This document shows, piece after piece, positions 1,511 to 36,422 of a stretch of 64,000 nucleotides of DNA. A model generated the notes under the pieces. That model did not search any database. It saw nothing but the letters and a program-made list of their open reading frames with translations, and was not told where the DNA came from. The translations under genes and the position numbers were made by a program. The DNA comes from Hyalangium ruber. Its GTDB lineage: Bacteria; Myxococcota; Myxococcia; Myxococcales; Myxococcaceae. Location of the stretch: NCBI RefSeq assembly GCF_034259325.1, contig NZ_JAXIVS010000001.1:310001-374000 (forward strand). Reading direction: 5' to 3'. How positions within the stretch are numbered: the stretch's first letter is position 1; each line of letters opens with the position of its first letter.

Positions 1511-2935
1511 TCAGTACTTCACCATCACGTGGCGCACCGTCGTGTAGTCCTCCAGTGCGTACATCGACAGGTCCTTGCCGTAGCCCGAGCGCTTCATGCC
1601 TCCGTGCGGCATCTCGCTCACCAGCATGAAGTGCGAGTTGATCCACGTGCAGCCGTACTGCAGCTCCGCCGCCACCCGCATCGCCTTGCCGATGTCCTTC
1701 GACCATACCGAGCTGGCCAGGCCGTACTCCGAGTCGTTCGCCCAGGAGATCGCCTCCTCCGGATCCTCGAAGCGCGTCACCGACACCACCGGACCGAACA
1801 CCTCGCGGCGGACGATCTCATCGTCCTGCCTCGCGCCCGCCACCACCGTGGGCGCGTAGAAGAAGCCCCCACCGCTGCCTGGCTTGCCTCCCGTGGTGAT
1901 CTCGATGTGCTTCTGCTGCGAGGCCCGCTCCACGAAGCCCGCCACCCGCTGGCGCTGCCGCTCGGAGATGAGCGGCCCCATCTCCACGCCCTGCCCGTCC
2001 GGCCCGCCCACGTTGATGGACGCCGCCGCGCTCGTCAGGTCCGAGACCAGCCGGTCATACACCTTGGCCCCCGCGTACACGCGGCACGCCGCCGTGCAGT
2101 CCTGGCCCGCGTTGTAGAAGCCGAACGTGCGGATGCCGGACACCACCGACTGCAGGTCCGCGTCGTCGAACACGATGACCGGCGCCTTGCCGCCCAGCTC
2201 CAGGTGCGTGCGCTTCAGACCCTCGGAGGCCGCCTGGAGGATCTTCTGCCCGGTGGAGACATCCCCCGTCACCGACACCATGCGGACCTGCGGCTGGGTG
2301 ACGAGCTTGGCGCCCACGCTCTCGCCCCGCCCCGTCACGATGTTGATGACGCCCGGCGGGAAGAGGCCGGCGATCAGCTCGCCCAGCTTCAGCGCCGTGA
2401 GCGGCGTCTGCTCGGAGGGCTTGAGCACCACCGTGTTGCCCGCCGCCACCGCCGGGCCCAGCTTCCACGCCGCCATCATCAGCGGGTAGTTCCACGGAGC
2501 AATCGAGGCCACCACGCCCAGCGGATCCCTGCGGATCATGCTGGTGTAGCCCGCCGCGTACTCACCGGTGGCCATGCCCGTCATGCACCGCGCCGCGCCC
2601 GCGAAGAAGCGGAACACGTCCGCGATGGCGGGGATCTCGTCATTGAGCGCCGCCGCGTACGGCTTGCCGCAGTTGCGAGACTCCAGCCGGGCGAAGTCCG
2701 CCGCCTTGGCCTCGATGGCGTCCGCCAGCTTGAGCAGCAGCGTGGCCCGATCCTTCGGCGGCGTGCGCGACCAGCCCGGGAAGGCCTTCTCCGCCGCCTT
2801 CACCGCCGCCTGGATCTGCGCGGGCGAGGCCTCGGGGACACGCGCCAGCACCTCGCCGGTGGCCGGAGCAAGGATCTCCTCTACCGCGCCCTCACCCGCC
2901 ACGAACTGCCCGTCGATGAACTGCTTGCCATCCAT
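1511..2935 (-). CDS. patD: NAD(P)-dependent gamma-aminobutyraldehyde dehydrogenase
   Basis: A 474-residue aldehyde dehydrogenase, the usual length. It shows the [11 protein letters not shown] substrate/cofactor segment (about 144-154), KPSEQTP (172-178), the general base Glu in LELGGKAP (E246) and the catalytic Cys in [11 protein letters not shown] (C280). The sequence around both catalytic residues is that of the PatD/YdcW group, which oxidises 4-aminobutyraldehyde to 4-aminobutyrate in putrescine breakdown. It sits 16 bp after potC and 27 bp before gabT in the same direction. Import, oxidative deamination, aldehyde oxidation and transamination are therefore encoded together. Confidence 0.88.
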
Positions 2936-2951
2936 GGGTCGTCTCCTTGTG

Positions 2952-3779
2952 TCACTTGCTGCTGCCGGCCACCTGCTCGGTGCCTCGGGTGAGGCGCCAG
3001 GCCAGCAAGAGGGGAATCGCGGTGATGATCATCACCAGCATCGCCACCACGTTCGTCACCGGCACGTCCCTCGGGCGCCCGAGCTGGTTGAGCATCCAGA
3101 TGGGCAGCGTGCGCTCGTGGCCCGCGGTGAAGGTGGTGACGATGATCTCATCGAAGCTCAGCGCGAAGGCGAGGATGCCGCCAGCCAGCAGCGCCGTGGC
3201 CATCTGCGGCAGCAGCACATAGCGGAACGTCTGCAGCCCGTCGGCCCCCAGGTCCATGGAGGCCTCCACCAGCGAGGTGGGCATGCGGCGCAGGCGGGCC
3301 ACCACGTTGTTGTAGACCACCACCAGACAGAAGGTGCCGTGCCCAGCGGCGATGGTCCAGAAGCCCATCTCCACCTCGGACAGCCGGAACGCCGACAGCA
3401 GGGCGATGCCGGTGATGATGCCCGGAAGCGCAATCGGCAGCGCGAACATCAGCGTGAGCGCCTCGCGGCCGAAGAACTGGCGCCGGGCGAGCACCAGCGC
3501 CGCCATCGTGCCCAGCACCAGGGACATCGCCGTGGCCGCCACCGCCACCTTCAGCGACAGGCCGATGGCCGCCAGCACGTCCTCGCGCTCGAAGGCCACC
3601 TCGAACCAGCGCAGGGTGAAGCCCTGGAGCGGGAAGCTGAAGGCGCTCTCCTCGGTGTTGAAGGCGTAGAGGCACACCACCAGGATGGGGAAGTGCATGA
3701 ACACCAGCCCACCCCAGGCCAGCAGCTTCAGCCACAGGGGAGCGCGGGGCCCTTCGGCCCCCACGGACTCAGAGCGCAT
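2952..3779 (-). CDS. potC: Spermidine/putrescine ABC transporter permease PotC
   Basis: A 275-residue inner-membrane permease with about six hydrophobic helices. The first is preceded by a short basic/polar N-terminus ([22 protein letters not shown]). The EAA-type cytoplasmic loop that docks to the ATPase is seen at [23 protein letters not shown]. It belongs to the PotC/YdcV type 2 permease family that imports polyamines. Its start overlaps the end of potB by 11 bp, which indicates translational coupling. Confidence 0.88.
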
Positions 3780-4701
3780 CGAAGGCCCCCAGTCGCCTGG
3801 CCATGGCCAGGTACGCGCCCACCAGGAGGATGGGCACCACGGTGAAGGAGGCCGCCAGGGGTAGGTTCCCCACCGAGCCCTGCAGCGTGTACACCATGGA
3901 GCCGATGAAGAGGCCCGGCGGGCCCACCAGCTGCGGGATGATGTAGTCGCCCAGCGTGAGCGAGAAGGTGAAGATGGAGCCCGCCACCACGCCCGGGAAG
4001 GACAACGGGAGGATGACGGTGCGGAAGGTCTGCGCCGGCTTCGCCCCCAGGTCCGCCGAGGCCTGGAGCAGCGCCGGAGGCACCCGCTCGATGGCCGCCT
4101 GGATGGGCAGGATCATGAACGGCAGCCACACATAGGTGAACACCAGGAAGCGGCCCAGGTTGGAGGTGGACAGCGAGGTGCCTCCCACGATGGGCTGCTC
4201 CAGCAGCCACTCCAGCGCGCCCGTCAGCCCCAGCTTGCCGATGAACCAGTAGATGATGCCGCCCTTGGTGAGGATGACCGTCCAGGCATAGGCCTTGACG
4301 ATGTAGCTGGCCCACATGGGCAGCATGATGGCGACGTAGAGCAGCCCCTTGGCGAGCCCCTGTGTGTAGCGCGCTACGTAGTAGGCGATCGGAAAGGCCA
4401 GCACCGCCGAGGCCACCGTCACCGAGGCGGCCATGCCCACCGTGCGCAGGACGATGTCGAGGTTGGTGTCCTCGACGAGCGCCTGGTAGTTCACCCAGGT
4501 GAACTCCGGCGTCACCGCCATGGTGAAGTCGTCGAAGGTGTAGAAGCTCTGGGCCAGCAGCGCCAGCAGCGAGCCCAGGTACACCACCCCGAACCACAGC
4601 AATGGCGGGGTGAGCAGCAGGAACAGGCGCAGCGTGCTCCGGCGGTAGAGCAGATTGGAGAGCTGTCGCCCCACTCCGGCGCTCGCGCTCGCCATGCTCA
4701 C
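3769..4701 (-). CDS. potB: Spermidine/putrescine ABC transporter permease PotB
   Basis: A 310-residue inner-membrane permease, partner of PotC. A cytoplasmic N-terminal tail precedes the first helix ([20 protein letters not shown]). The EAA loop [23 protein letters not shown] and several further hydrophobic segments follow. It resembles PotB/YdcU permeases. It overlaps the end of the ATPase gene by 4 bp and the following permease by 11 bp, the tight spacing of a co-translated ABC operon. Confidence 0.88.
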
Positions 4702-5714
4702 GCCCCCGGCTCCAGCTCCACCATGGCCTGCCGTGACCAGGCGACCCGCACCGTGTCTCCCACCGCGGGCTGGCCCACCGTCTCCTCGGTGTTGGGCACG
4801 TTCACCGCGAGCAGCGGCCCGCCACGCACCTCCACCGTGTAGCGGCTGGAGGCCCCGTGGTACTGCACGTCCACCAGCTTGCCGTCCACGCCCAGCCGCT
4901 CCGAGTCCACCTCGCGCACGAAGCGGATGTGCTCCGGGCGCACGGAGAAGGGCCGCTCCGCCCCGGTGAGCTGGCGCGCCAGCTCGCCCTCCAGCACGTT
5001 CGAGGAGCCCACGAAGCGAGCGACGAACACGGTACGGGGCTTGGTGTACAGCCCCTTGGGCGTGTCCACCTGTTCGATCTTCCCCTGGTTGAAGACGGCC
5101 ACCCGGTCCGACATGGACAGGGCCTCGCCCTGGTCGTGGGTGACGTAGATGAAGGTGATGCCCAGCCGCCGCTGGAGCGACTTGAGCTCCGTCTGCATCT
5201 GCTCGCGCAACCGCAGGTCCAGCGCGCCCAGCGGCTCATCCAGCAGCAGCACGCGGGGCTTGTTCACCAGGGCGCGCGCCAGGGCCACGCGCTGGCGCTG
5301 GCCTCCGGACAGCTCGGCCGGACGGCGCTGGCCGAAGCCCTTGAGCGCCACCATCTCCAGCGCGGCATCGGCCTCGGCGTAGCGGCGCTGCTTGTCCACC
5401 CCCTTCACCATGAGCCCGTAGGCCACGTTGTCCCGCACGGTCATATGCGGGAAGAGCGCGTAGTCCTGGAACACGGTGTTGACGTCACGCGCGTAGGGGG
5501 GAACCCCGGCGGCCTCCTTCCCATGGAGCAGGAGGCTGCCGGTGGTGGGCTGCTCGAAGCCGGCGATCAGGCGCAGGCACGTCGTCTTCCCCGAGCCGGA
5601 GGGACCCAGCAACGAGAAGAACTCCCCGTCCTGGATGGACAGGGAGACGGAATCCACGGCCCGCACGGAGCCGTAGTGCCGACTGATCTGCTTGAGCTCG
5701 ACGGCCTGACTCAC
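4698..5714 (-). CDS. potA: Spermidine/putrescine ABC transporter ATP-binding protein PotA
   Basis: A 338-residue cytoplasmic ATPase driving polyamine uptake. Walker A is GPSGSGKTT, followed by the Q-loop (VFQDYALFPHMTV), the signature LSGGQRQRVALARAL, Walker B (VLLLDEPLGALD) and the switch His (YVTHDQGEAL). A C-terminal TOBE-type regulatory domain follows (FSVRPEHIRF...VAWSRQ). I place the start at a GTG at 5714, five bases after the potD stop. This gives VSQAVELKQISRHYG, the usual PotA opening. A longer frame from 5777 would overlap potD by 58 bp and adds unrelated residues. Confidence 0.88.
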   Translation of the reverse strand: MSQAVELKQISRHYGSVRAVDSVSLSIQDGEFFSLLGPSGSGKTTCLRLIAGFEQPTTGSLLLHGKEAAGVPPYARDVNTVFQDYALFPHMTVRDNVAYGLMVKGVDKQRRYAEADAALEMVALKGFGQRRPAELSGGQRQRVALARALVNKPRVLLLDEPLGALDLRLREQMQTELKSLQRRLGITFIYVTHDQGEALSMSDRVAVFNQGKIEQVDTPKGLYTKPRTVFVARFVGSSNVLEGELARQLTGAERPFSVRPEHIRFVREVDSERLGVDGKLVDVQYHGASSRYTVEVRGGPLLAVNVPNTEETVGQPAVGDTVRVAWSRQAMVELEPGA

Positions 5715-5719
5715 GGTGC

Positions 5720-6868
5720 TCAGCGGCCGCCCATCACGCCGATGTAGTCCTGAGTCCACTTGCTGTAGGGGACGCATGTGCCCTGGCTAGCGCATTTGGC
5801 CACCGGCGTCTTCCAGAAGTGGACCTGCTCGAAGCGCTCGAAGCCGTTCGTCTTACAGAAATCCCCGCCACCGGGGGCCGCCGTCTTACAGGCCTCGGGC
5901 ACCACGGGGTTGGCGCCAAACCACTCGGCCAGCGCCGACTGGAGGTTCTTGTTGAGCGACCACTCCATCCACTTGTAGGCGCACACCGGGTTCTGGGCGT
6001 TGGTGTGCAGCATGGTGGTGTCCGCCCAGCCCGTGGAGCCCTCGGTGGGGATGGTGGAGTTGATGGGCTGCTTCTCGGCCTTGAGCGCGTTGACCTGGTA
6101 GGGCCAGGCGCTCGAGGCGGCGACGCCCTCGTTCTTGAAGTCGTTCATCTGCACGGTGACGTCGTGCCAATAGCGGTGCGTGAGCTGCTTCTGGGCGCGC
6201 AGCACCTTGAGCACCTCGGCGTACTGCTTGTCGTTGAGCTCGTAGGGGTCCTTGATGCCGAGCTCCGGCTTCTTCTTCATGAGGTACAGCGCCGCGTCGG
6301 CCACGTAGATGGGGCCGTCATAGGCCTGGACGCGGCCCTTGTTGGGCTTGCCGTCCGGCAGGTTCTGCGGCTCGAACACCACGGACCAGGAGGTGGGCGC
6401 CTCCTTGAAGACGTTGGTGTTGTACATGAGCACGTTGGGGCCCCACTGGTAGGGCACGCCGTAGTGCTTGCCCTCCACCGTGTGCCAGGGCGCGTTCTTC
6501 AGCCGCTCGTCCACCGTCTTCCACGAGGGGATGAGCTCCAAGTTGATCTCCTGCACCTTCTTGCCGTGGACCAGGCGCAGGCTGGCGTCACCGGAGGCCG
6601 TCACCAGGTCATAGCCGCCCTGGTTCATCAGGCTCACCATCTCGTCCGAGGTGGCCGCCGTCTTCACGTTGACCTTGCAGCCGGAGTCCTTCTCGAACTG
6701 GGTGACCCAGTCGTACTTCTTGTCGGTCTCGCCGCGCTCGATATAGCCCGGCCAGGCGATGATGTTGAGCTTGCCCTCGGGCTTGCCGAGTTGCTTCGGA
6801 GGGGCCGCCAGGGCCTGGCCCGCAGCAGCTACCACCAGACCCATCGCCAACGGCTTCAGGTTCAGCAT
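5720..6868 (-). CDS. potD: Periplasmic spermidine/putrescine-binding protein PotD
   Basis: A 382-residue extracellular solute-binding protein and first gene of the polyamine operon. The start is the ATG at 6868, preceded by AAGGAG 11 bases upstream, and it opens a Sec signal peptide (MLNLKPLAMGLVVAAAGQALA, cleavage near ALA-AP). A longer open frame exists upstream but lacks protein-like features. The mature part starts GKLNIIAWPGYIERG, typical of PotD/PotF. The C-terminal half has several unpaired-looking cysteines (PVCAYKW, ACKTAAPGGGDFCKTNG, CASQGTC), more than enterobacterial PotD and possibly disulfide-bonded. Confidence 0.88.
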   Translation of the reverse strand: MLNLKPLAMGLVVAAAGQALAAPPKQLGKPEGKLNIIAWPGYIERGETDKKYDWVTQFEKDSGCKVNVKTAATSDEMVSLMNQGGYDLVTASGDASLRLVHGKKVQEINLELIPSWKTVDERLKNAPWHTVEGKHYGVPYQWGPNVLMYNTNVFKEAPTSWSVVFEPQNLPDGKPNKGRVQAYDGPIYVADAALYLMKKKPELGIKDPYELNDKQYAEVLKVLRAQKQLTHRYWHDVTVQMNDFKNEGVAASSAWPYQVNALKAEKQPINSTIPTEGSTGWADTTMLHTNAQNPVCAYKWMEWSLNKNLQSALAEWFGANPVVPEACKTAAPGGGDFCKTNGFERFEQVHFWKTPVAKCASQGTCVPYSKWTQDYIGVMGGR

Positions 6869-6999
6869 CCGCGTCGCTCCTTGGAGTGAGGAAGGGTTCA
6901 CGCGGGCATGGCGAGCCGCCAAACGGCGCTGCCCCCCCGTGGAGCCCGGGAGGACTCTAGAGGAGGCAGCGGCCCTACTCAATGGATGTGGTGCGCGGA

Positions 7000-9675
7000 C
7001 TACGGGGCTTCCGGGAAGTGGACGACGACGCCGTTGCCCACGGCCCAGATGTCCTGCGTCGAGGCCGCGGCGATGTCCTTGAGGGCGGTGCTGCCGGAGT
7101 AGTGCTCCGTCCAACCCCCCACCCTGCCCCGGCGGATCTTTCCGTCCTCGCAGGCGATGTACGCGGAGGAGATGTCGAAGGCCACCACGCTGTTGAACCG
7201 TGTCGTCACGGAGGTGTCCTGGCTGGCGGAGTGCCAGGTGGTGTTCCCATCCCACCACCACAGGGTTCCCAGCGCGCCCACGGCGTAGGCATGGGTGTTG
7301 TCCCAGGCCCAGACTCCCCGCAGGGCTCGGTCGGTGCTGCTCGAGCTGAACGAGTGGTCGACGAGATTGCTGTTCGCGACAGCGTCGTAGCCCAAGATGT
7401 CGCTGTCGTTCTGCGGATCGATATTTCCGACGGCGAGAAGCTTGGAGGCCGACGCCCCATGGATGTCCTGGAAGCTCTCCCCGGAGGTCTTCTTGAAGAC
7501 GGGGTGGTTGCCGTAAGTCCACTCGTACACTTGCCCGACATCATTCACCACGTAGACGGTGGTGCTCGAACCGAAGCCGATGATGCCCGTCAGCGGCCGG
7601 TTGGACGTGGTCCCTCCGGTGGCGTTCACGGTGCTGCCCGTGGCGCACGACGCGCCCGGCAATGAGAGCGTCGCCAGGTTGCCACCGTCTCCCGCCATGA
7701 ATACCTGACCGGTGCCCGGCTGAACCCACACGGCTCTCCAGTTGACAGCGCCACACAGCGCGAACCGGGAGGTGAAGGCAGCACCCGCCGTAGCTCGGAA
7801 GGCCAGCGCGCCCGCATCTCCCGCGACCCAGACCGGATACCCGCCATCCCCCACCGCCACGGTGTTCCAGTTCCGGGCCGTCAGCGTCGCATCATTCAGC
7901 GGCTTCCAAATCTTGCCACCACAGACGTTCTCTTCGTCCTTCCCTCCGAAGCAGTTGTTGTCCCGATCGTCACAGACCTCGGTCCCACCGCCACGGTTGT
8001 GGGGGTCCGTGTCATCACAATCGTAGTCGTTCAAGACGTGGTTCGCGGGAGGCGACTGGGACGCGCACACCTTGGCCACGGGGCCGGCTGTCGCGCCCGC
8101 CGTGTCCGCGTCCGCGTCCGGGTAGTAGTTCACGGGAGGCTGCGCGTTGCACTCGGTGCCGGTCTCGTCCGCCTTGCACTGACGCGTGCCCGTGCAGGTG
8201 TCGTTCGTGCAGGCATTCCCCTTGTCAGCGAACGTCTCGTCGGTGCTGTTGTCGCAGTCGTCGTCCCGGCTGTTGCACGTCTCGGTGGCCCCCGGAAACA
8301 CCGTGTTGCGCGTGTCGTCGCAGTCGAACTGGGCCGTGGGAGCCACTCGGCCGCCAGGCTGCACGCAGTTCACCACCACGTCGCTCTGAAGCCCGTAGGT
8401 GTCGTTGTCCGCGTCACGGTACCAGTTCTTGTTGAAGCCCTCGTCGCTGCCGCCCACGCAGTTGTCGTCGATGTTGTTGCACACCTCGGTGGCGCCCGGC
8501 TTCACGTTCGCATTGGTGTCATCGCAGTCGAAGCCTGAGCCCGCGGTGACGTAACCCGTGGGCATGCGGCACCTCTGCACCATGCTTGCCTGGGCACCAA
8601 AGCTGTCGCCGTCCGCGTCGCGGTAATACGCGGTCGTCGGCAGCCCTTCGTCCACGCCACCGACGCAGTTGTTATCCACCTCGTCACACACCTCGGCCTT
8701 GCCCGGCGTGACCTGGGCGTTGGTGTCGTCGCAGTCGTTGCCCGTGGTGACGAGACCGGCCGGCTGCATGCAAGCCTTCACGGCCGCGCCCCCGCCCACG
8801 CCGTCGCCGTCGTTGTCCCGGAAATAGTCCGTCAGGGGCAGCCCTTCATCGACGCCGCTGACGCAGTTGTTGTCCACGCCATCGCACACCTCGGCCTTGC
8901 CCGGCGTGCGCTGGGCGTTGGTGTCGTCGCAGTCATTGCCGGAGATGACGTGGCCGGCCGGCTGCGCACAAGCCATCACGGCCGGGCCCGCCCCGGCGCC
9001 ATCGCCATCGCCATCGAGGTAGTAGCCCGTGAGGGTCAGCCCCTCATCCATGCCGTTGACGCAGTTGTTGTCCTTGCCGTCGCACAGCTCGGTCTTGCCC
9101 GGAGCGATGGTGTTGTCCGCGTCATTGCAGTCGTTGCTGGAGGCCACGAGACCCGCTGGCGCCGTGCAGCCCTTCGCCGCGGAGGTGCCCGCGCCCACGC
9201 CATCGCCGTCCTGATCGCGGAAGAAATCCTGCTGGAAGTTGCCCACCTGGGCGTCGTTGCAGTCCGTTCCCCTGGGAGCGGCCACGTAGCCGTCGTTGTC
9301 CACGTCCGGCGCGCTCAGCGCGACGAGCACCTCCTGCGTGCCCGGCTTGTCGAGGGTGAACTCCCGCGTCTCGCGGGCCACCTCCTGCCCCCCGCACTCC
9401 CGCTCATGAGCGGTGACGAAGACCTCCAGCGTGCGCCCCCAGTCGCTCCCGCGAAAGACGGCGAAGTCCGCGGACCGCACCGGGCGGCTGAACACCAGGG
9501 CCTGCTTGCTCTGCTGCTTCTCGGGGGCCGACTTGTCGCGCGCCAGCACGACGATGCAGCCCGCGTTGAAGTCGAAGGAGACGTCGACATGAACGGCGGC
9601 CTGCCGCTCATCCGGCAGGGAATCGCCACAGCCGACGAACAGCGCCACCAGGGACAAAAGAAGGCCACGCTTCAT
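7000..9675 (-). CDS. MopE-type putative metal-binding lipoprotein with C-terminal propeller-like domain
   Basis: 891 residues with a lipoprotein signal (MKRGLLLSLVALFVGC, lipid Cys 16). After an N-terminal beta domain (about 25-125) come about seven tandem units of 40-50 residues with the pattern DxDGDG...NDCDDTNA...PG..EVCDG.DNNC.GG.DEG, the MopE/'putative metal-binding motif' repeat. They are rich in acidic residues and paired cysteines, which suggests calcium or metal binding plus disulfides. The last ~290 residues (from about KIWKPLNDATL) carry repeated W-A-V-G strands (AVGDGGYPVWVAGDAG, VWAWDNTHAYAVGALG) typical of a beta-propeller. It is probably anchored at the cell surface; ligand and role are unknown. 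It has a 130 bp gap from the pot operon and is likely transcribed alone. Confidence 0.85.
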   Translation of the reverse strand: MKRGLLLSLVALFVGCGDSLPDERQAAVHVDVSFDFNAGCIVVLARDKSAPEKQQSKQALVFSRPVRSADFAVFRGSDWGRTLEVFVTAHERECGGQEVARETREFTLDKPGTQEVLVALSAPDVDNDGYVAAPRGTDCNDAQVGNFQQDFFRDQDGDGVGAGTSAAKGCTAPAGLVASSNDCNDADNTIAPGKTELCDGKDNNCVNGMDEGLTLTGYYLDGDGDGAGAGPAVMACAQPAGHVISGNDCDDTNAQRTPGKAEVCDGVDNNCVSGVDEGLPLTDYFRDNDGDGVGGGAAVKACMQPAGLVTTGNDCDDTNAQVTPGKAEVCDEVDNNCVGGVDEGLPTTAYYRDADGDSFGAQASMVQRCRMPTGYVTAGSGFDCDDTNANVKPGATEVCNNIDDNCVGGSDEGFNKNWYRDADNDTYGLQSDVVVNCVQPGGRVAPTAQFDCDDTRNTVFPGATETCNSRDDDCDNSTDETFADKGNACTNDTCTGTRQCKADETGTECNAQPPVNYYPDADADTAGATAGPVAKVCASQSPPANHVLNDYDCDDTDPHNRGGGTEVCDDRDNNCFGGKDEENVCGGKIWKPLNDATLTARNWNTVAVGDGGYPVWVAGDAGALAFRATAGAAFTSRFALCGAVNWRAVWVQPGTGQVFMAGDGGNLATLSLPGASCATGSTVNATGGTTSNRPLTGIIGFGSSTTVYVVNDVGQVYEWTYGNHPVFKKTSGESFQDIHGASASKLLAVGNIDPQNDSDILGYDAVANSNLVDHSFSSSSTDRALRGVWAWDNTHAYAVGALGTLWWWDGNTTWHSASQDTSVTTRFNSVVAFDISSAYIACEDGKIRRGRVGGWTEHYSGSTALKDIAAASTQDIWAVGNGVVVHFPEAP

Positions 9676-9732
9676 GGCCCTCCATCATACTCCCAGGTGG
9701 TCAGGTATCGACCACCACTTCAGTGGTATGGC

Positions 9733-10182
9733 TCAGGAGGCGCCCGGACGCCGGCTGAACAGGGCCGTGGCGATCTCGGTCATCACTGGCTCGCCCGTCT
9801 GGTTGCGCACCTCGAAGCGGAACTTGATGGCGCCCCGATCCGGCTTGCTCCGGGAGGGCGCCAGCGAGAGCACCTCGACCCGCACCGAGAGTTCGTCCCC
9901 GGGCCGCACCGGGCGCAGCCAGCGCAGCTCGTCCAGTCCCGGAGAGCCCATGCTCGCGGTGTTGCCCAGGATGTTCTCCACCACCAGCCGGTGGCAGATG
10001 GAGGCGGTGTTCCAGCCGCTGGCGATGATGCCTCCAAAGATGGAGTGACGGGCCGCCTCTTCGTCGATGTGGAAAGGCTGGGGATCGTACTGCCGGGCGA
10101 AGGTCAGGATCTCCTCGCGGGTCACCAAATAGGAGCGTGTCTCGAACGTCTCGCCCACCTGGAAGTCATCGAAGTAGCGCAT
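9733..10182 (-). CDS. MaoC-family (R)-specific enoyl-CoA hydratase/dehydratase
   Basis: 149 residues, one hot-dog domain of usual length, starting at the ATG at 10182 (MRYFDDFQVGETFET). The MaoC active-site region is visible as FARQYDPQPFHIDEEAARHSIFGGIIASGW, with the catalytic Asp/His in YDPQPFHID and the GG(I/L)IASG turn. Such proteins hydrate enoyl-CoA thioesters or act in fatty-acid and polyketide metabolism. It lies 17 bp downstream of the AraC-type regulator gene and in the same direction, so it is probably co-transcribed with it. The substrate is not predictable. Confidence 0.85.
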   Translation of the reverse strand: MRYFDDFQVGETFETRSYLVTREEILTFARQYDPQPFHIDEEAARHSIFGGIIASGWNTASICHRLVVENILGNTASMGSPGLDELRWLRPVRPGDELSVRVEVLSLAPSRSKPDRGAIKFRFEVRNQTGEPVMTEIATALFSRRPGAS

Positions 10183-10199
10183 TCGCGCGGCAGTATGCC

Positions 10200-11231
10200 T
10201 CAGCGGCTGGCGCCGTGACGCTGCCGAAATGCCTCCGGGCTCATGCCCCACCAGCGCTTGAAGGCGCGGTGGAAGACGCTCGGATCGCTGTAGCCCAGCA
10301 GAAAGGACACCTCGGCGATGGACACCCGCCGCTGCAGGAAGTCCGAGGCGCGCTCGCGGCGCAGCTCCTCGAGGATGGCCGCGTAGCTCTGCCCCTCCTC
10401 GGCCAGCCGACGCTGGAGCGTGCGCGCCGGCAGGTGGAGCGCTCGCGCCACGGCCGCGAAGGTGTAGTCCCCGCCGCCCAGCGAGCGCTGCAGGTAGGCC
10501 CGGACCCGCGCCACCACCCCGGGCGCCTCCGGTAGCTGGCTCAGCTCCCGCTGCACCTGGCGCTCGAAGATGGCGTGGACCAGCGCGTCGGCGTGGAGGA
10601 ACGGGAGGGCCGCGTCCTCGCGGGAGAACTCGATGTCGTTGGTGGGAGCCCTGAAGACGATGGGACAGCCGTAGCGCTCCCGGTGCTCGCGTGCGTCGGC
10701 CGGCTCTGGATGCACGAAGCGCACGCACAGCGGGGTGACGTTCTGCCCGGTGAGCAGGCGTGCGCCCTGGATGAACTGCGCCATCGCCATCTCCGACAGG
10801 TGCCGGTGCGCCGGCCGCCACGCGCCCACGGGGGTGTAGCGCACCCGAATGCCTCGCTCCGTCTCCTCCAGCTTGAGGCGCTCCCCATCCCCCCACACCC
10901 GCTGGTAGCGCACGCCCCGCTCGAAGGACTCGTGCAGGTTGGGGCTGGTGGCGATCACGGCCGAGGCCATGTCGTCCGGGTCCACCACCGGCAGGTTGGC
11001 CATGTGCAGCCCCAGGTTGTCATCCCCGCTGAGCTCCACCGCCCGCTCCAGCAGCGCGTCCAGCGTGGCGTAGGGGATGCGGTACTCCGGGTCTTCCAGC
11101 GCGGAGAGCGACAGGCCGAACTCCCGGCACAGTCGCTCGGAGGTGACGCCTGGCAGCTTCAGGGCGTCCAACACCTGCATGGCATGACGGACGCTTCGGG
11201 AGCCGAGGGCGGCGACGGCCGAGGAGGGCAT
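10200..11231 (-). CDS. AraC-family transcriptional regulator with arabinose-binding-like N-terminal domain
   Basis: 343 residues. The N-terminal ~200 residues (LKLPGVTSERLCREFGLSLSALEDPEYRIPYATLDALLERAVEL...) match the Arabinose_bd domain seen in OruR/ArgR-like AraC regulators. The C-terminal ~100 residues are the double helix-turn-helix (FAAVARALHLPARTLQRRLAEEG...VSFLLGYSDPSVFHRAFKRWWGMSPEAFR). It precedes the MaoC gene by 17 bp, so it may control fatty-acid or CoA-thioester metabolism. That link is inferred from position only. Confidence 0.87.
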   Translation of the reverse strand: MPSSAVAALGSRSVRHAMQVLDALKLPGVTSERLCREFGLSLSALEDPEYRIPYATLDALLERAVELSGDDNLGLHMANLPVVDPDDMASAVIATSPNLHESFERGVRYQRVWGDGERLKLEETERGIRVRYTPVGAWRPAHRHLSEMAMAQFIQGARLLTGQNVTPLCVRFVHPEPADAREHRERYGCPIVFRAPTNDIEFSREDAALPFLHADALVHAIFERQVQRELSQLPEAPGVVARVRAYLQRSLGGGDYTFAAVARALHLPARTLQRRLAEEGQSYAAILEELRRERASDFLQRRVSIAEVSFLLGYSDPSVFHRAFKRWWGMSPEAFRQRHGASR

Positions 11232-11326
11232 GCCCCGTATGTCTAGCGGCTCCGTGGCGCGCCCGGCAAACCGTTCTGGCGTCCGGTGTCAGTGCGCGGC
11301 CCCGGCTCCGGAGCCATCCTCGGGGC

Positions 11327-12157
11327 ATGGAAACCACGATGACGCCCTCTCGTACCTGGTGGCCGCGCCTCCATCTCTTCGAGTTGCTCGATCAGCGGTG
11401 GTACCCCGCCCCCCTGCGGGACCACTGCACCAACTACCTCGCCACCATCGCCCAGCGGATGGGCATCTTCGACGCGGTCGCTCCCCTGCTGCTCCGAGGC
11501 CTGGAGGCGGGTGGCACCGACACGGTGGTCGACCTGGGCTCGGGAGGAGGCGGGCCGCTGCCCCGGCTGTGCGACAGCCTGGAGCGAGAGCAGGGCCGGC
11601 GTGTCCGGGTGCTGCAGAGTGACTTGTTCCCGAACGAGCAGGCACGGCAGCGAGCGACCGCCACGGGCGCGGAGTACCTGGAGCAGCCCGTGGACGCGAT
11701 GCGGGTCCCCGCCGAGCTTCGAGGCATGCGGACGATGTTCAACGCCCTCCACCACTTCCGCCCGGAAGAGGCGCGGGCGGTGCTTGCCGATGCCCAGGCG
11801 CGGGGAGTCCCCATCGGCGTGTTCGAGGTGGTGGAGCGCTCGCCCAAGGGGGTGATCAGCTCCCTGTTCATCCCCCTGCTCGTCCTGGCCTTCACGCCCA
11901 TGCTGCGCCCCCTCACCCTGCCCCGGCTCTTCTTCACCTATGCGGTGCCCCTCCTGCCCCTGGCCATCTTCTGGGATGGGCTCGTCTCCACGCTGCGCGC
12001 CCACCGGCCCGAGGAGCTGCGGCGCATGACACAGTCGCTCACCCGCGAGGGTTACACCTGGGAGGTGGGCGTGGCGCACAAGCCCGGTAAGCCGCCAGTG
12101 ACGTACGTGCTGGGCCTGCCTGCTTCCTCGACCGCATCGAACGGGCGGAGGGGCTGA
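11327..12157 (+). CDS. Class I SAM-dependent methyltransferase with hydrophobic C-terminal segment
   Basis: 276 residues. The SAM-binding motif I is clear at about 66-77 (TVVDLGSGGGGP), followed by an acidic post-motif (VLQSDLFPNEQARQRA) and a FNALHHFRPEEARAVLADA segment like motif III. Unusually, residues about 180-225 are strongly hydrophobic (SLFIPLLVLAFTPML...FFTYAVPLLPLAIFWDGL), suggesting membrane association or a lipid-like substrate. It faces away from the AraC gene across a 95 bp divergent spacer. The substrate is unknown. Confidence 0.75.
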   Translation: METTMTPSRTWWPRLHLFELLDQRWYPAPLRDHCTNYLATIAQRMGIFDAVAPLLLRGLEAGGTDTVVDLGSGGGGPLPRLCDSLEREQGRRVRVLQSDLFPNEQARQRATATGAEYLEQPVDAMRVPAELRGMRTMFNALHHFRPEEARAVLADAQARGVPIGVFEVVERSPKGVISSLFIPLLVLAFTPMLRPLTLPRLFFTYAVPLLPLAIFWDGLVSTLRAHRPEELRRMTQSLTREGYTWEVGVAHKPGKPPVTYVLGLPASSTASNGRRG

Positions 12158-12208
12158 CCCGGGAGGGCTCGACCTTCTAGAGTGGGCGCCCTCTCACGGA
12201 GTGGCGCT

Positions 12209-15200
12209 ATGTCTCCCGGTCGTCTCCTCACCGTTCTTCTGCTGCTTTGCACGCTGACCGCCTGTTCGGGAGGCGGTCCCGAGGGGCCCTCCGACGCGGG
12301 GCCCCAGCCGGGAGACGCGGGCGACAGCGGCACGCCCTCCACTCCCGCCCCGGTCCTCCCCTCCACCACACTGGGGGAGAGCACCGTCGGCGCGGTCTTC
12401 GGGCGCAACCTGGGCGCCACGGGCGGCACCCCGCCCCTCACCTACTCCGCCCAGGGGCTTCCCGAGGGCATTACGCTCGACGCCCAGACAGGCACGCTCT
12501 CCGGCTCTCCCAGCACCGCCGGGAGCTTCGAGTTCGACCTCTCCGTCAGCGACAGCGCCGGCCTCGGGGACCAGGAGCGCTACGCGCTGGTCGTCTTCGA
12601 GGCTCCCCGGTTCGTCACCTCGGCCCTGCCGGTGGGGTTCGCTGAAGCGCCCTACTTCACCCAGCTCGAGGCCACGGGGGGGAAGCCACCCCTCACCTAT
12701 GCCATCAGCGGTGATCCCCTGCCGCCGGGGCTCGTCCTGGAGCCCTCCGGCGCCATCCGTGGCACCCCTTCCACCCACGGCACCTCCGCCGTCGCGTTCG
12801 TCGTCACCGATGCCCACGGCGTCGTGAAGCGTGCGCCCTTTACCCTCGAGGTGCGTCCCCCACCGCTCAGCATCAACCCCCCGCCCCTCAGCGACTCCTA
12901 CCGAGGCAGTCCTCTCTCCATCACCTTCACGGGCTCCGGAGGCGTCCTTCCCTATCGCTGGTCGCAGCTCTCCGGCACGTGGCCTCCGGGCACGACGCTT
13001 GGCAACGAAGGAGTCCTCTCCGGCACACCCACCACGCCCGGCACCTTCACCTTCACCGTTCAGCTCACCGATAGCCTGGGCAGCACGGCCACGCGGACAC
13101 TCTCCGTCACCGTCTACGAGCCGCCCTCCATCCCCGCGGTCACGCTCGGCGACGGGTACGTCTCCGAGCCCTACACCACCACCATCCCCGGCACGAACGG
13201 CAAGCCGCCGTATCACTTCATGCTCTCCCAGGGCGAATTGCCTCCGGGCCTGTCCCTCGCGAGCAATGGTGTCCTCTCCGGCACGCCCACGGCGTCGGGT
13301 ACCGCCTCCTTCGAGGTGACGGTGCGCGACACCAGCGGTCGCACCAGCGCACGCACCCTCGCGCTCTCGGTCTACGCCCTGCCGACGCTCCCCGCCACGC
13401 TGCCAGAGGCCCGCGTGGGGACCGCCTACTCGCAGCCCCTCCCCGTGTCGGGTGGCAAGCCGGCCTACTCTTTCGCGCAGGTGTCCGGCGACCTGCCCCC
13501 GGGCCTCCAGCTCTCCTCGGGCGTCGTCTCCGGCACGCCGCAGGCGGGCGGGAGCGCCTCCTTCACCGTGCGCGTCACCGATGCCAATGACCGCTCCAGC
13601 ACGCAGACGGTCAGCCTCTTCGTCCGCCATCCGCCTCGCATCACCACGACGGACCTGCCGGACGCCACCCTCAACACCTCCTATGTCCACGTCCTCGGCT
13701 ACACGGGTGGGCAAGGAACCCTGACCTGGGGCTACTCCGGCACCCTGCCTCCCGGCCTCTCCTTCGGCTCGGATGGCTCCGTGCGCGGCACGCCCAGCGC
13801 CACGGGCATCTGGTCCTTCACCGTCACTCTCGAGGACTCGATGGGAGGCGTGGACTCGCGGGTGTTCTCGCTCACCGTGCGCACCCTTCCTTCCGATGGG
13901 GGTACGCCGGATGGCGGCTCGGGGACCGATGGCGGTACGCCGGATGGCGGCTCGGGGACCGATGGCGGCACACCGGATGGCGGCACGCCGGATGGCGGCT
14001 CCGGCCCTGACGCGGGGGTGCCCTTCCGTGTGGCCCACTGGAACATCGAGTGGTTCGGCAGCGACACCCAGGGCCCACCCCGCTCCACGCCGCCGGGAGG
14101 CCCGGTGGACGCCGTCCAGTTCGCCAACGTGCGCGAGGTGCTGACGAGCTACGGCATCAACCTCTGGGGCCTGGTGGAGATCGTCGACAACGCGGACTTC
14201 GATGCGCTCAAGGCTCAGCTGCCCGGCTACGACGGCTTCCTGTCCAATGATCCGCGCGTCCAGTGGGGCTCCTCGTACTACAGCCCCACCGGGCAGAAGC
14301 TGGGCGTGCTCTACGACAGCCGCCTCACCTTCCAGAGCGCCGAGCTCATCCTCACCAGCGCCTCCAACGACTTCGGCGGCCGGCCTCCCATGCGGGTGGA
14401 CTTCCTCACGCCCATCCAAGGCGTGGAGTCACCGCTCACGCTCATCGTGCTCCACATGAAGGCCTTCGAGGATCAGGCCTCCTATGACAGACGCCAGCGC
14501 GCGGGCCTGGCGTTGAAGAACTACCTCGACGCGATGCCCTCCAGCCGGGTGTTCGTGGTGGGCGACTGGAATGACGACGTGGACGAGTCCATCACCCGCG
14601 AGGCGGGCATCCCGCTGCCCAGCCCGTACCAGAGCTTCGTCAACGACGGCACCGACTACACCTTCGTCACCGAGGTGCTGTCGTACGCGGGCGAGAGCTC
14701 CACCACGGACTTCCCGGACATGATCGACCACACGCTGGCCACGAACGAGGTGATGGCGCACTACCTCCCGCAGACGGTCCAGGTGCTGCGTCCGACGTGG
14801 ATCCCCGACTACGCGGGCACCACCAGCGACCACTACCCGGTGGTCAGCCAGTATGACTTCGGAGCCACTCCCACGCCGCCCACGCTCACCCTCACTGGCC
14901 CTACGGGCGGCACGTACTCGGCTGGCAGCCCGCTGGTCATCACCTGGGAGGCCTCGCCGGGCCTCGGCACCCTGGTGCTGTCGTACTCCCTGGACTTCGG
15001 AGTGACGTGGAACTTCCTGACCTACATCTTCGAAGAGGGCCCGGGCAGCTACACGTGGACGGTGCCGAACGTGGACAGCACGGGCGTGTTCCTGGGCATC
15101 GTCCCGCTGTACGCGTCCTGGCCGCGAGACACCAGCGACGTGCCGCTGACGTTCGTCGCCCTGCCTCCGCCGGCCGCGGTCTTCATCAATGAGTACCTGC

Positions 15201-34057: not shown

Positions 34058-34537
34058 CTACTGCGTCAGGTTGGAGCGAGAGGCGCCCGGACCACCCGGA
34101 CCACCCGGGCCACCCGGGCCACCCGGACCCGCAGGGGTGGAAAGACTGACGCCCGGGCCACCCGGACCACCCGGACCACCCGGGCCCACCAGGCTGACAC
34201 CCGGCCCCCCCGGGCCGCCAGGGCCACCAGGGCCCGTCACGGAGGCCCCCGGCCCATTGCGCCCGGAGCCGTCCCGAGCCTCGGTGAGCACCGGCTGCGC
34301 ACCGGGCATCGGCTGGACGGAGAAGGTCACACCACTCTGGGCCGCGCCGCCCACATAGATGTTCACGACCGTCGGCTGGGCCGGAGCCTGCGCTGAAACC
34401 GAGCCCGTGGCCTGGAACCCGCCGAGCATGCTCACGGGAACCTCGGTGAGATCTCCCGCCTCTCCCAACCGCTCCAGCTTCACTGCCGCGCCCGTCGTCG
34501 TGTCGACGGTGAGCAGATACTTCGTCTGGTTCGACAT
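34058..34537 (-). CDS. Gly-Pro-Gly-Gly repeat protein, candidate RiPP precursor for the adjacent radical SAM enzyme
   Basis: 159 residues from the ATG at 34537 (GGGAG site), 25 bp after the radical SAM gene on the same strand. Residues 1-94 form a folded-looking leader ([28 protein letters not shown]...[21 protein letters not shown]). Residues 95-151 consist of [12 protein letters not shown] blocks separated by VSLV and VSLSTPA, ending ASRSNLTQ. There are no cysteines and no signal peptide. The order (conserved leader, low-complexity repetitive tail, immediate maturase neighbour) is that of a modified peptide precursor. The alternative is a collagen-like structural protein unrelated to the enzyme. 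Codon third positions support this strand over the mirror GPP frame on the plus strand. Confidence 0.65.
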
Positions 34538-34562
34538 CTCTTCTCCCTGGGGTGACTTCACT

Positions 34563-36422
34563 TCAGTTGGACCTCGACAACTTCTCCGTTCGCAGCCCGT
34601 CCGGCAGCATCGCCACCGTGACGAGCAGCGCGCCGATGCTGGCGATGACGCTCTGATCGATGAACCGCTGGAGCGTCACCTCGGGCGCCGGGCCTGGGGT
34701 GCTCTCGGCCACGGCCCGCAGCACCTGCTCGCGCGAGGTGGGCGCATCGCACGCCAGCAGCAGGGCCAGCGCCTCCTCCGACAGCCGCTCACTGGAGCGA
34801 GAGCGGGTGAAGCGGCTGTCCACCAGGACGAAGCCGCCCTGCCAGTGTGGCCGCACGGCGAGCTCGCCACACTCGCGCCGCCGATGCCGCTCCTTCCACT
34901 CCTGGCAGAACGCGCCAATCGCGGCGCCGCGTTCGATCACCTGCCCGAACTGGGGGTGCTCGTAATCGAAGTAGTAGGCCAGCGCCTCCAGCGTCTCCTC
35001 CGGGAGGGGGAACACGTGCCGGTACGCGGCCATGGGCATGATGCGGGTGAACCCGTGCTCCCGCCAGCGCGCGTGGTTGGGGCTGAAGCGGTCCATCCGA
35101 ATCGGAGAGACCGCATCGGGCGGGCGCAGGTGCACCAGCTTGCGCAGCAGCGAGAGCGTGCGCTCGTAGTCGTCCAGGTCCTCCTGGGGGAACCCATAGA
35201 GGACGTTCCAGAGCGCCTCCACGCCGAGCTCCTGGCACCAGCGCAGCAGCGCCACGTTCTGCGCGCCGGAGACGCCCTTGCGCATCACCCGCAGCGTGCC
35301 ATCCGCCAGGCTCTCCACGCCGGCCTGCACGTGGGTGACGCCGGCCTCGCGCAGCTGCCGCACCTGGCGGCGCTTCAGGTTGGACTTGATCTCGAAGAAC
35401 TTATCCGTGCGCGCCGGCCGCTCCTCCCACAGGGGGAGCAAATCCTTGAAGGCGTCCATGCCCAGGATGTTGTCGGCGAACTGCAGCGGGAAGGGGCCGT
35501 GGCGACGCGCCAGCTCGTCGGTCTCCTCCAGCACCCGCTGGGGGCTCTTGCGGCGGAAGCCCATCGTCTCGCCATTCAGGCCGCAGAAGGTGCAGTGCGA
35601 GCGCGCCCCCCACCAGCAGCCGCGAGAGCCCTCCACGGGCAGCCACATGCCGTGGGCGAGCTGGGGCGCGCTGGTGCGCATGACGCGGAAGTAGTCCTCG
35701 TAGTCCGGGGTCCGCAGCGCATCGAGCAGCGCCGAGTCCGAGCCCTTGCCGCGCGGGGCCTCGCGAATCACCCCACCCTCCCGGTAGAGAAAGCCCGGAG
35801 GCACCTCGGGGCGGCCGTCGCGCAGGTTCTCGCAGAGCTGGGGGAAGGAGACATCCGCCTCGCTGGTGGCCACGTAGTCGAGGAACTCGAAGTGCTCCAT
35901 GTACTGGCGGCCCATGGCGGCCTCGAAGTTGGCGCCGCCGGCCACCAGCTTCACGTGCGGGTAGCGCTCGCGAATCATCCGCGCCAGGGCGAGCGAGGGC
36001 ATCGTCTGCTCGAAGGTGCTGGTGAAGCCCACCAGCGAGTACTGCCCCCAATCACAGGCCTCGAAGGCCAGGCGGAGGAACTGGGGCGCCAGCTCCTCCA
36101 GGGCCCAGATGGGGCCGCGCTGCTCGGGCGACAGGCCCCACACGGGGTGGTCCAGCACCTCGCGGGCGTAGGCCTCGCGGGCCGAGCCCCGGCGCCCATG
36201 GAAGGCCTGGGCAAAGGCCCACTCTCCGGCCAGCGCCGTCATCGGCGCCTCCGAGGTGAAGAAGGAGTAGGCCTCGGCGCCGAGCAGCTTCCACAGCAGG
36301 ACGTTGAAGTACTTGGTGTCGCACGCGATGCCCCGCTGCTTCACGGCCGCCTGGAGCAGCCCCGCGGCGAGGCTGGGGCGATTCACTGCGGCGAGGGGCA
36401 TGACCACCAGGGCAGTTTTCAT
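34563..36422 (-). CDS. RiPP maturation radical SAM C-methyltransferase (B12-binding, rSAM protein 1 type)
   Basis: 619 residues, cytoplasmic. The N-terminal ~200 residues are a cobalamin-binding Rossmann-type domain ([21 protein letters not shown]...[13 protein letters not shown]). The radical SAM domain has Fe-S ligands in [21 protein letters not shown] (C269, C277, C280), the unusual C-x7-C-x2-C spacing and the CGLNG tail of the RiPP maturation radical SAM protein 1 family (TIGR03975). The motif [11 protein letters not shown] and a C-terminal accessory region follow. Such enzymes methylate unactivated carbons in ribosomal peptides. The only candidate substrate nearby is the GPGG-repeat protein encoded 25 bp downstream. 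No peptidase or exporter is adjacent. Confidence 0.88.

What the first reader, a model, noticed from the sequence alone, without database searches (positions are those of the whole stretch)
34058..36422. Radical SAM C-methyltransferase paired with a GPGG-repeat protein: possible new RiPP class
A maturase of the B12-binding RiPP radical SAM protein 1 family (C269/C277/C280 in a C-x7-C-x2-C motif) is followed after 25 bp by a 159-residue protein. That protein has a leader-like first 94 residues and a tail made of three [12 protein letters not shown] blocks. Known precursors for this maturase family, as far as I know, are not Gly-Pro repeats. A C-methylated collagen-like or polyglycine-II-like peptide would be a new product type. 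There is no transporter, peptidase or signal sequence, so the product might stay intracellular or be matured elsewhere.
Basis: partly seen in the sequence, partly recalled or inferred. Interest (0 to 1): 0.82.

Follow-up and report, generated by a model that had tools for sequence, protein, structure and literature searches.

The report
Methylase paired with Gly-Pro repeat protein
A soil myxobacterium carries a conserved two-gene unit in which a vitamin-B12-dependent radical enzyme, of a family that adds methyl groups to peptides, sits beside a small protein with a constant front end and a fast-changing glycine-proline repeat tail, so the tail is probably its substrate, although no one has yet shown the chemistry.

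Summary
On the minus strand, 36422..34563 encodes a RiPP-maturation radical SAM C-methyltransferase (TIGR03975, 586 bits against a cut-off of 282). After 25 bp comes a 159-residue protein (34537..34058) with a Gly-Pro repeat tail. In this genome the codon pattern for GPGGPGGPG occurs only in that gene.

The pairing is real. A profile of the first 42 residues finds the protein in 8 of 195 Myxococcota genomes. Each copy lies directly downstream of a rSAM 72-85% identical to the window's, and those rSAMs form one clade. In one genome the two genes are fused in frame. No other gene is shared. The leader (residues 1-38) is nearly invariant and the tail is hypervariable: seven have GPG[GA]PG units, one has none. 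That is the pattern of a RiPP leader and core.

The sister rSAM (about 62%) sits in a YcaO/ThcOx cluster with an NHLP-like leader peptide and a Pro-rich tail. Other sub-clades of the family lie beside different tandem-repeat proteins.

Most likely the rSAM iteratively C-methylates the repeat tail, by analogy with PoyC and the bottromycin enzymes (same Cx7Cx2C motif). The substrate link is well supported; chemistry, sites and function are inferred. No result here supports a collagen-like or polyglycine-II structure.

The parts
34563..36422 (-). B12-type radical SAM RiPP maturase (TIGR03975 rSAM_ocin_1), 619 aa; Cx7Cx2C at residues 269/277/280
   Evidence: 585.7 bits, cut-off 281.85; Cys triad invariant; fold of OxsB/TokK/TsrM/CysS
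34566..34868 (-). C-terminal winged-helix domain of the rSAM (about residues 519-619), a candidate leader-binding (RRE-like) domain; assignment inconclusive
   Evidence: three strands, three helices, wing; winged-helix matches, Z up to 7.0; PqqD only E 0.013 in 2 of 13 members
34538..34562 (-). 25-bp spacer with a ribosome-binding-site-like GGGAGAAGAG before the precursor ATG; similar arrangement in the relatives, stop codon lost in G004
34058..34537 (-). 159-aa precursor-like protein
34424..34537 (-). conserved leader, residues 1-38 ([38 protein letters not shown]), predicted beta hairpin
34061..34252 (-). candidate core: from about residue 96 to the end, three (GPG)n blocks separated by VSLV / VSLSTPA-type spacers

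Best explanation
A two-gene RiPP-type module. The 159-aa protein is the precursor: residues 1-38 are the recognition leader, and the variable C-terminal part with [aliphatic/Ser/Thr]-GPG[G/A]PG units is the core. The radical SAM enzyme binds the leader, possibly through its C-terminal winged-helix domain. With cobalamin and SAM it makes repeated radical C-methylations along the core, most plausibly at beta-carbons of the Val/Leu/Thr/Pro residues in or beside each GPG unit, by analogy with PoyC and the bottromycin enzymes. There is no dedicated exporter or protease next to it, so release (if any) is done by housekeeping proteins or the product stays in the cell. Shown here: strict gene linkage, a conserved leader with a variable repeat tail, and the enzyme's family and fold. 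Inferred: that the protein is the substrate (about 0.8), that the reaction is methylation (about 0.65 overall), and the sites (unknown).
For: Leader profile: 8 of 195 Myxococcota genomes at about E 1e-26 or better, next hit E 2e-3; all 8 lie directly downstream of a rSAM 72-85% identical to the window's. These rSAMs form one clade (SH-aLRT 99). In G004 the pair is one 771-aa ORF. Of 38 leader positions, 24 are invariant in seven full-length sequences while the tail is hypervariable. In five of six relatives compared, more leader codons differ silently than not. No other neighbour is shared: the Archangium APP1-domain neighbour is unlinked in the window genome and is present in G007, which lacks the pair. 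The sister rSAM (about 62%) lies in a YcaO + ThcOx cluster with an NHLP-like leader peptide ending PEPQPAPLPHPTPRPEPKPGPKK. The Cx7Cx2C triad is invariant in 28 aligned rSAMs; reviews report that motif for PoyC and the bottromycin enzymes, with Cbeta-methylation (PMC5682303, PMC11285071). The predicted fold matches OxsB, TokK, TsrM and CysS. Precedents for repeat cores and beta-methylation: TvgA/TvgB TVGG repeats (PMC9062424) and ApyD (PMC10635010).
Against: No chemistry was tested. One of the eight precursors (G080) lacks GPG units, so the repeat is not needed for the pairing. The precursor is long for a RiPP, with no Gly-Gly or other cleavage motif conserved across the family, and no protease or transporter gene was recognised nearby. 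The B12-binding domain match in Pfam is below its cut-off (17.2 against 32.1). The leader-binding domain is only weakly supported. In G002 the precursor is frameshifted after the leader, which is either a sequencing error or a sign that the tail is dispensable. Not every B12 rSAM of this broad type need be a methylase (OxsB is not).
Confidence: 0.62

Rival explanations
1. The rSAM modifies the repeat protein but by another radical reaction (cyclopropane or other C-C bond formation, epimerisation, desaturation), as TvgB does on TVGG repeats.
For: B12-rSAM enzymes include non-methylases such as OxsB, the top fold match; TvgB makes cyclopropylglycine on a repeat core.
Against: TvgB is not described as a B12 enzyme of this family in the passages read; the Cx7Cx2C members characterised so far (PoyC, bottromycin enzymes) methylate.
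Confidence: 0.15
2. The small protein is a stand-alone structural or scaffold protein that travels with the rSAM; the enzyme works on a different substrate, and the leader is a binding domain or chaperone.
For: The protein is long, has no conserved cleavage motif, and is fused to the enzyme in one genome. The tail is of low complexity with no required motif (G080).
Against: A short invariant head with a hypervariable tail is the usual leader/core signature; no other gene is shared among the eight loci to supply another substrate.
Confidence: 0.15
3. Decaying or incidental gene pair: the repeat tail is a slippage product of G+C-rich DNA without function and the pairing is inherited by descent only.
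For: Gly-Pro codons are G+C-rich; copy number and frame vary (G002 frameshift).
Against: Leader codons change mostly silently in most comparisons; leader kept in 8 of 8 and in differing neighbourhoods; repeat codons vary at third positions; no such repeat elsewhere in the genome.
Confidence: 0.05

Closest known systems
PoyC / PoyB of polytheonamide and the bottromycin radical SAM methyltransferases (Cx7Cx2C B12-rSAM Cbeta-methyltransferases)
   Same: Cx7Cx2C motif, B12-rSAM architecture, RiPP maturation, peptide substrate encoded nearby
   Different: Polytheonamide and bottromycin come from multi-gene clusters with other leaders and cores; here only two genes are conserved and the precursor has a new leader and Gly-Pro repeats. 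The PoyC and bottromycin sequences were known from papers only and not compared here.
Sister TOMM-type cluster in G041 (L056): rSAM about 62% identical with YcaO, ThcOx-like oxidase and NHLP-like leader peptide with Pro-rich tail
   Same: Closest paralogous enzyme, RiPP context, Pro-rich tail next to it
   Different: Different leader family and extra modifying enzymes
TvgA/TvgB (TVGG-repeat peptide and rSAM; PMC9062424)
   Same: rSAM acting along a tandem-repeat core
   Different: Other rSAM family and chemistry (cyclopropylglycine), with transporters and a dioxygenase in the cluster
ApyD (B12-rSAM, beta-methyltyrosine; PMC10635010)
   Same: B12-rSAM peptide Cbeta-methylase; weak profile match (69 bits)
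   Different: Well below the ApyD family cut-off (750 bits); different substrate and cluster

Membership tests
TIGR03975 (RiPP maturation radical SAM C-methyltransferase, rSAM_ocin_1) | score over the curated cut-off, full length | tested here: met
   585.7 bits against 281.85, profile 2-605 of 606
TIGR03975 (RiPP maturation radical SAM C-methyltransferase, rSAM_ocin_1) | radical SAM cysteine triad | tested here: met
   C269/C277/C280 invariant in 28 rSAMs
PoyC-type B12-rSAM Cbeta-methyltransferase | Cx7Cx2C motif | tested here: met
   motif reported for PoyC and bottromycin enzymes
PoyC-type B12-rSAM Cbeta-methyltransferase | cobalamin-binding domain | tested here: inconclusive
   Pfam B12-binding 17.2 bits, below 32.1, but the whole-protein fold matches B12-rSAM enzymes at E down to 7e-16
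PoyC-type B12-rSAM Cbeta-methyltransferase | methyl transfer to a peptide side chain | not testable with these tools
   needs co-expression and mass spectrometry
RiPP precursor | adjacent to a maturase, strictly linked | tested here: met
   8 of 8 genomes, none without
RiPP precursor | conserved leader, variable core | tested here: met
RiPP precursor | proteolytic release of the core | not testable with these tools
   no protease gene or conserved cleavage motif seen
RRE-containing maturase | PqqD-like winged-helix leader-binding domain | tested here: inconclusive
   winged-helix fold predicted; PqqD E 0.013 in 2 of 13 members
Collagen-like protein | long uninterrupted Gly-X-Y array | tested here: not met
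   blocks of 12-15 residues interrupted by spacers; tail modelled as disordered
NHLP / Nif11 leader precursor | NHLP or Nif11 leader profile match | tested here: not met
   no NCBIfam or Pfam match up to E 1, none in Pfam up to E 10

The most novel reading that the evidence does not exclude
Myxobacteria use Cx7Cx2C B12-radical SAM methyltransferases on tandem-repeat, often Pro-rich proteins as a general strategy. The GPG protein here is one of at least three such substrate families (others: RPE[VI]I.E[IV][GA]P-type repeats next to an AMMECR1-type protein, and GSAMSKYAA repeats with four tandem rSAMs). The products would be multiply C-methylated repeat polypeptides, perhaps retained in the cell, a RiPP type not described in the papers found.
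Probability: 0.3. Interest if true: 0.82.

Novelty: new variant of a known kind. Interest (0 to 1): 0.6.

Why it matters
If the pair works as inferred, it is a minimal (two-gene) C-methylation system with an undescribed leader that accepts widely varying repeat tails: a simple, testable route to repeatedly methylated Gly-Pro polypeptides. It also gives a set of natural leader/core variants, and a natural enzyme-substrate fusion, for working out how B12-rSAM enzymes of the PoyC type recognise and walk along a substrate, which is still unclear.

Tried and rejected
Reading the plus-strand GPPGPP ORF as a collagen was rejected: it is the antisense of the conserved gene. The APP1-domain gene downstream in Archangium was considered a third module member and rejected. 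Multiple alignments mixing lone precursors with rSAMs misplaced the precursors, so the first structure job used the natural fusion, one stop-read-through homologue (P0003) and rSAMs only; the leader part therefore rests on two sequences there. Docking of the leader on the enzyme could not be read: coordinates are not returned, and leader confidence is only pLDDT 70-76 (77-83 in the short construct). An RRE was not confirmed by sequence, and PqqD entries do not appear among the 50 structure matches listed. A search for papers joining collagen-like, RiPP and radical SAM found nothing relevant; a search for the family accession TIGR03975 found two metagenome papers (not read). Tree: only the quick version was used. 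Repeat enrichment near other TIGR03975 genes is modest (8 of 32 against 2 of 40 random regions, p 0.018 at the looser thresholds, 0.07 at the strict one, and loci of one clade are not independent).

Full report
What is there. The window lies in a 10.77-Mb genome of the family that also holds Archangium lansinium (family f1). The minus strand carries a 619-aa radical SAM protein (36422..34563) and, 25 bp further, a 159-aa protein (34537..34058). The enzyme matches TIGR03975, RiPP maturation radical SAM C-methyltransferase, over its whole length (585.7 bits, cut-off 281.85), with cysteines in C-x7-C-x2-C. The small protein matches nothing in NCBIfam or Pfam.

Is the repeat more than chance? The codon pattern for GPGGPGGPG occurs in the whole genome only in this gene. 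Its Gly codons use GGC, GGT and GGG and its Pro codons CCG and CCT. The relatives keep Gly-Pro units with other codons and other spacings.

Is the pairing real? Searched as a protein in the 96 genomes of the family, the first 100 residues hit 8 genomes well (including the window) and 3 marginally. Searched as a leader profile in 195 Myxococcota genomes, they hit the same 8 at about E 1e-26 or better, with the next at 2e-3. In all 8 the gene lies directly downstream of a rSAM; six relatives aligned to the window's rSAM are 72-85% identical to it, and G002 has the same order. An Archangium without the pair (G007) lacks both genes. In G004 the rSAM stop is lost and both proteins are one 771-aa reading frame, with the precursor's ATG and purine-rich upstream stretch retained. 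In the rSAM tree the eight form one clade, sister to the G041 paralogue of about 62% identity.

Anatomy of the precursor. In seven full-length sequences 24 of the first 38 residues are invariant; the rest is variable. Consensus leader: [38 protein letters not shown]. A hydrophobic stretch (VVNIYxGG) follows in most. The tails consist of units such as [48 protein letters not shown] and [13 protein letters not shown]080 has none. Leader codon differences to the window are mostly silent in most comparisons (for example 16 silent, 5 replacement against G003; equal, 7 and 7, against G041). The predicted structure of the natural fusion gives a beta hairpin for the leader (pLDDT 70-76) and a disordered tail.

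The enzyme. The model of the rSAM part (pLDDT mostly over 90) matches OxsB, TokK, TsrM and CysS, all B12-dependent radical SAM enzymes; by sequence only TokK is found. The C-terminal domain is a winged helix in the model, the fold class of leader-binding RRE domains, but sequence support for PqqD is weak, so this stays open. The Cx7Cx2C motif is shared with PoyC and the bottromycin methyltransferases, which act on beta-carbons of Val, Ile, Phe, Pro and others (PMC5682303, PMC11285071).

Surroundings. No transporter, protease or other RiPP gene is evident beside the pair in the window (judged from ORF sequences); upstream is an ArsR-like and AHSA1-like gene pair, downstream a lipoprotein-like gene. 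In the relatives the neighbours differ (kinase-like gene upstream and APP1-domain protein downstream in Archangium, AHSA1 protein in G041). The APP1 gene is unlinked in the window genome and is present in G007, which lacks the pair. The conserved module is therefore the two genes alone.

The wider family. 45 of 96 genomes of the family have a TIGR03975 protein over the cut-off. Its members lie next to quite different precursor candidates: NHLP-like leader peptides (L056, L070) and, notably, several unrelated tandem-repeat proteins: (PRPEIIREIAPHPP)n in L062, (EIRPLPEIRPIP)n in L065, (VRPPPVVMEVGP)n in L066, PRPPKPRPEVIMEVGP in L083, and (GSAMSKYAA)n in L058 with four consecutive rSAMs. Those with Pro-rich repeats form another clade than the window's. 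Against 40 random regions the excess of repeat ORFs is modest (8 of 32 against 2 of 40, p 0.018), but the pattern suggests that tandem-repeat substrates are a recurring partner of this enzyme family in myxobacteria.

Conclusion. The best reading is a two-gene RiPP-type module with an undescribed leader and a repeat core. That the repeat protein is the substrate is likely; that it is C-methylated is an analogy with characterised Cx7Cx2C enzymes; which residues are hit and what the product does are unknown. Collagen-like or polyglycine-II structure has no support here. No paper found describes this precursor, within an open-access library only.

Noticed in passing
L049 (G004:C25) 7028-9343: Natural in-frame fusion of rSAM and precursor by loss of the rSAM stop codon, with the precursor ATG and purine-rich upstream stretch retained.
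   Followed up: partly
L053 (G002) 8802-9440: Precursor frameshifted at a G run after the leader; the rest of the GPG tail is intact in another frame. Sequencing error or phase-variable switch.
   Followed up: no
L058 (G071:C1) 5129-13437: Four consecutive TIGR03975 rSAM genes after a 177-aa protein with about five perfect GSAMSKYAA repeats and a VVHIYIG stretch resembling VVNIYVG of the window protein.
   Followed up: partly
L062 1671-6893; L065 531-6004; L066 4684-10032; L083 304-5081: Recurring arrangement in another rSAM clade: a Pro-rich tandem-repeat protein near a TIGR03975 rSAM; where checked (L062) the gene between them encodes an AMMECR1 / phosphoribosyltransferase-like protein, with a similar protein in L083.
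   Followed up: partly
L056 (G041:C95) 1683-9949: TOMM-type cluster with NHLP-like leader peptide, YcaO, ThcOx-like oxidase, rSAM about 62% identical to the window's and an alpha/beta hydrolase; an arginase-like gene lies convergent beside it.
   Followed up: partly
L059, L060, L078, L079, L080: A set of TIGR03975 rSAMs (MSGDSVQVRFVVAPFLPEHQ-like start) sits behind a conserved ArsA-like ATPase, a 143-165-aa protein and a 930-945-aa protein; function unknown.
   Followed up: no
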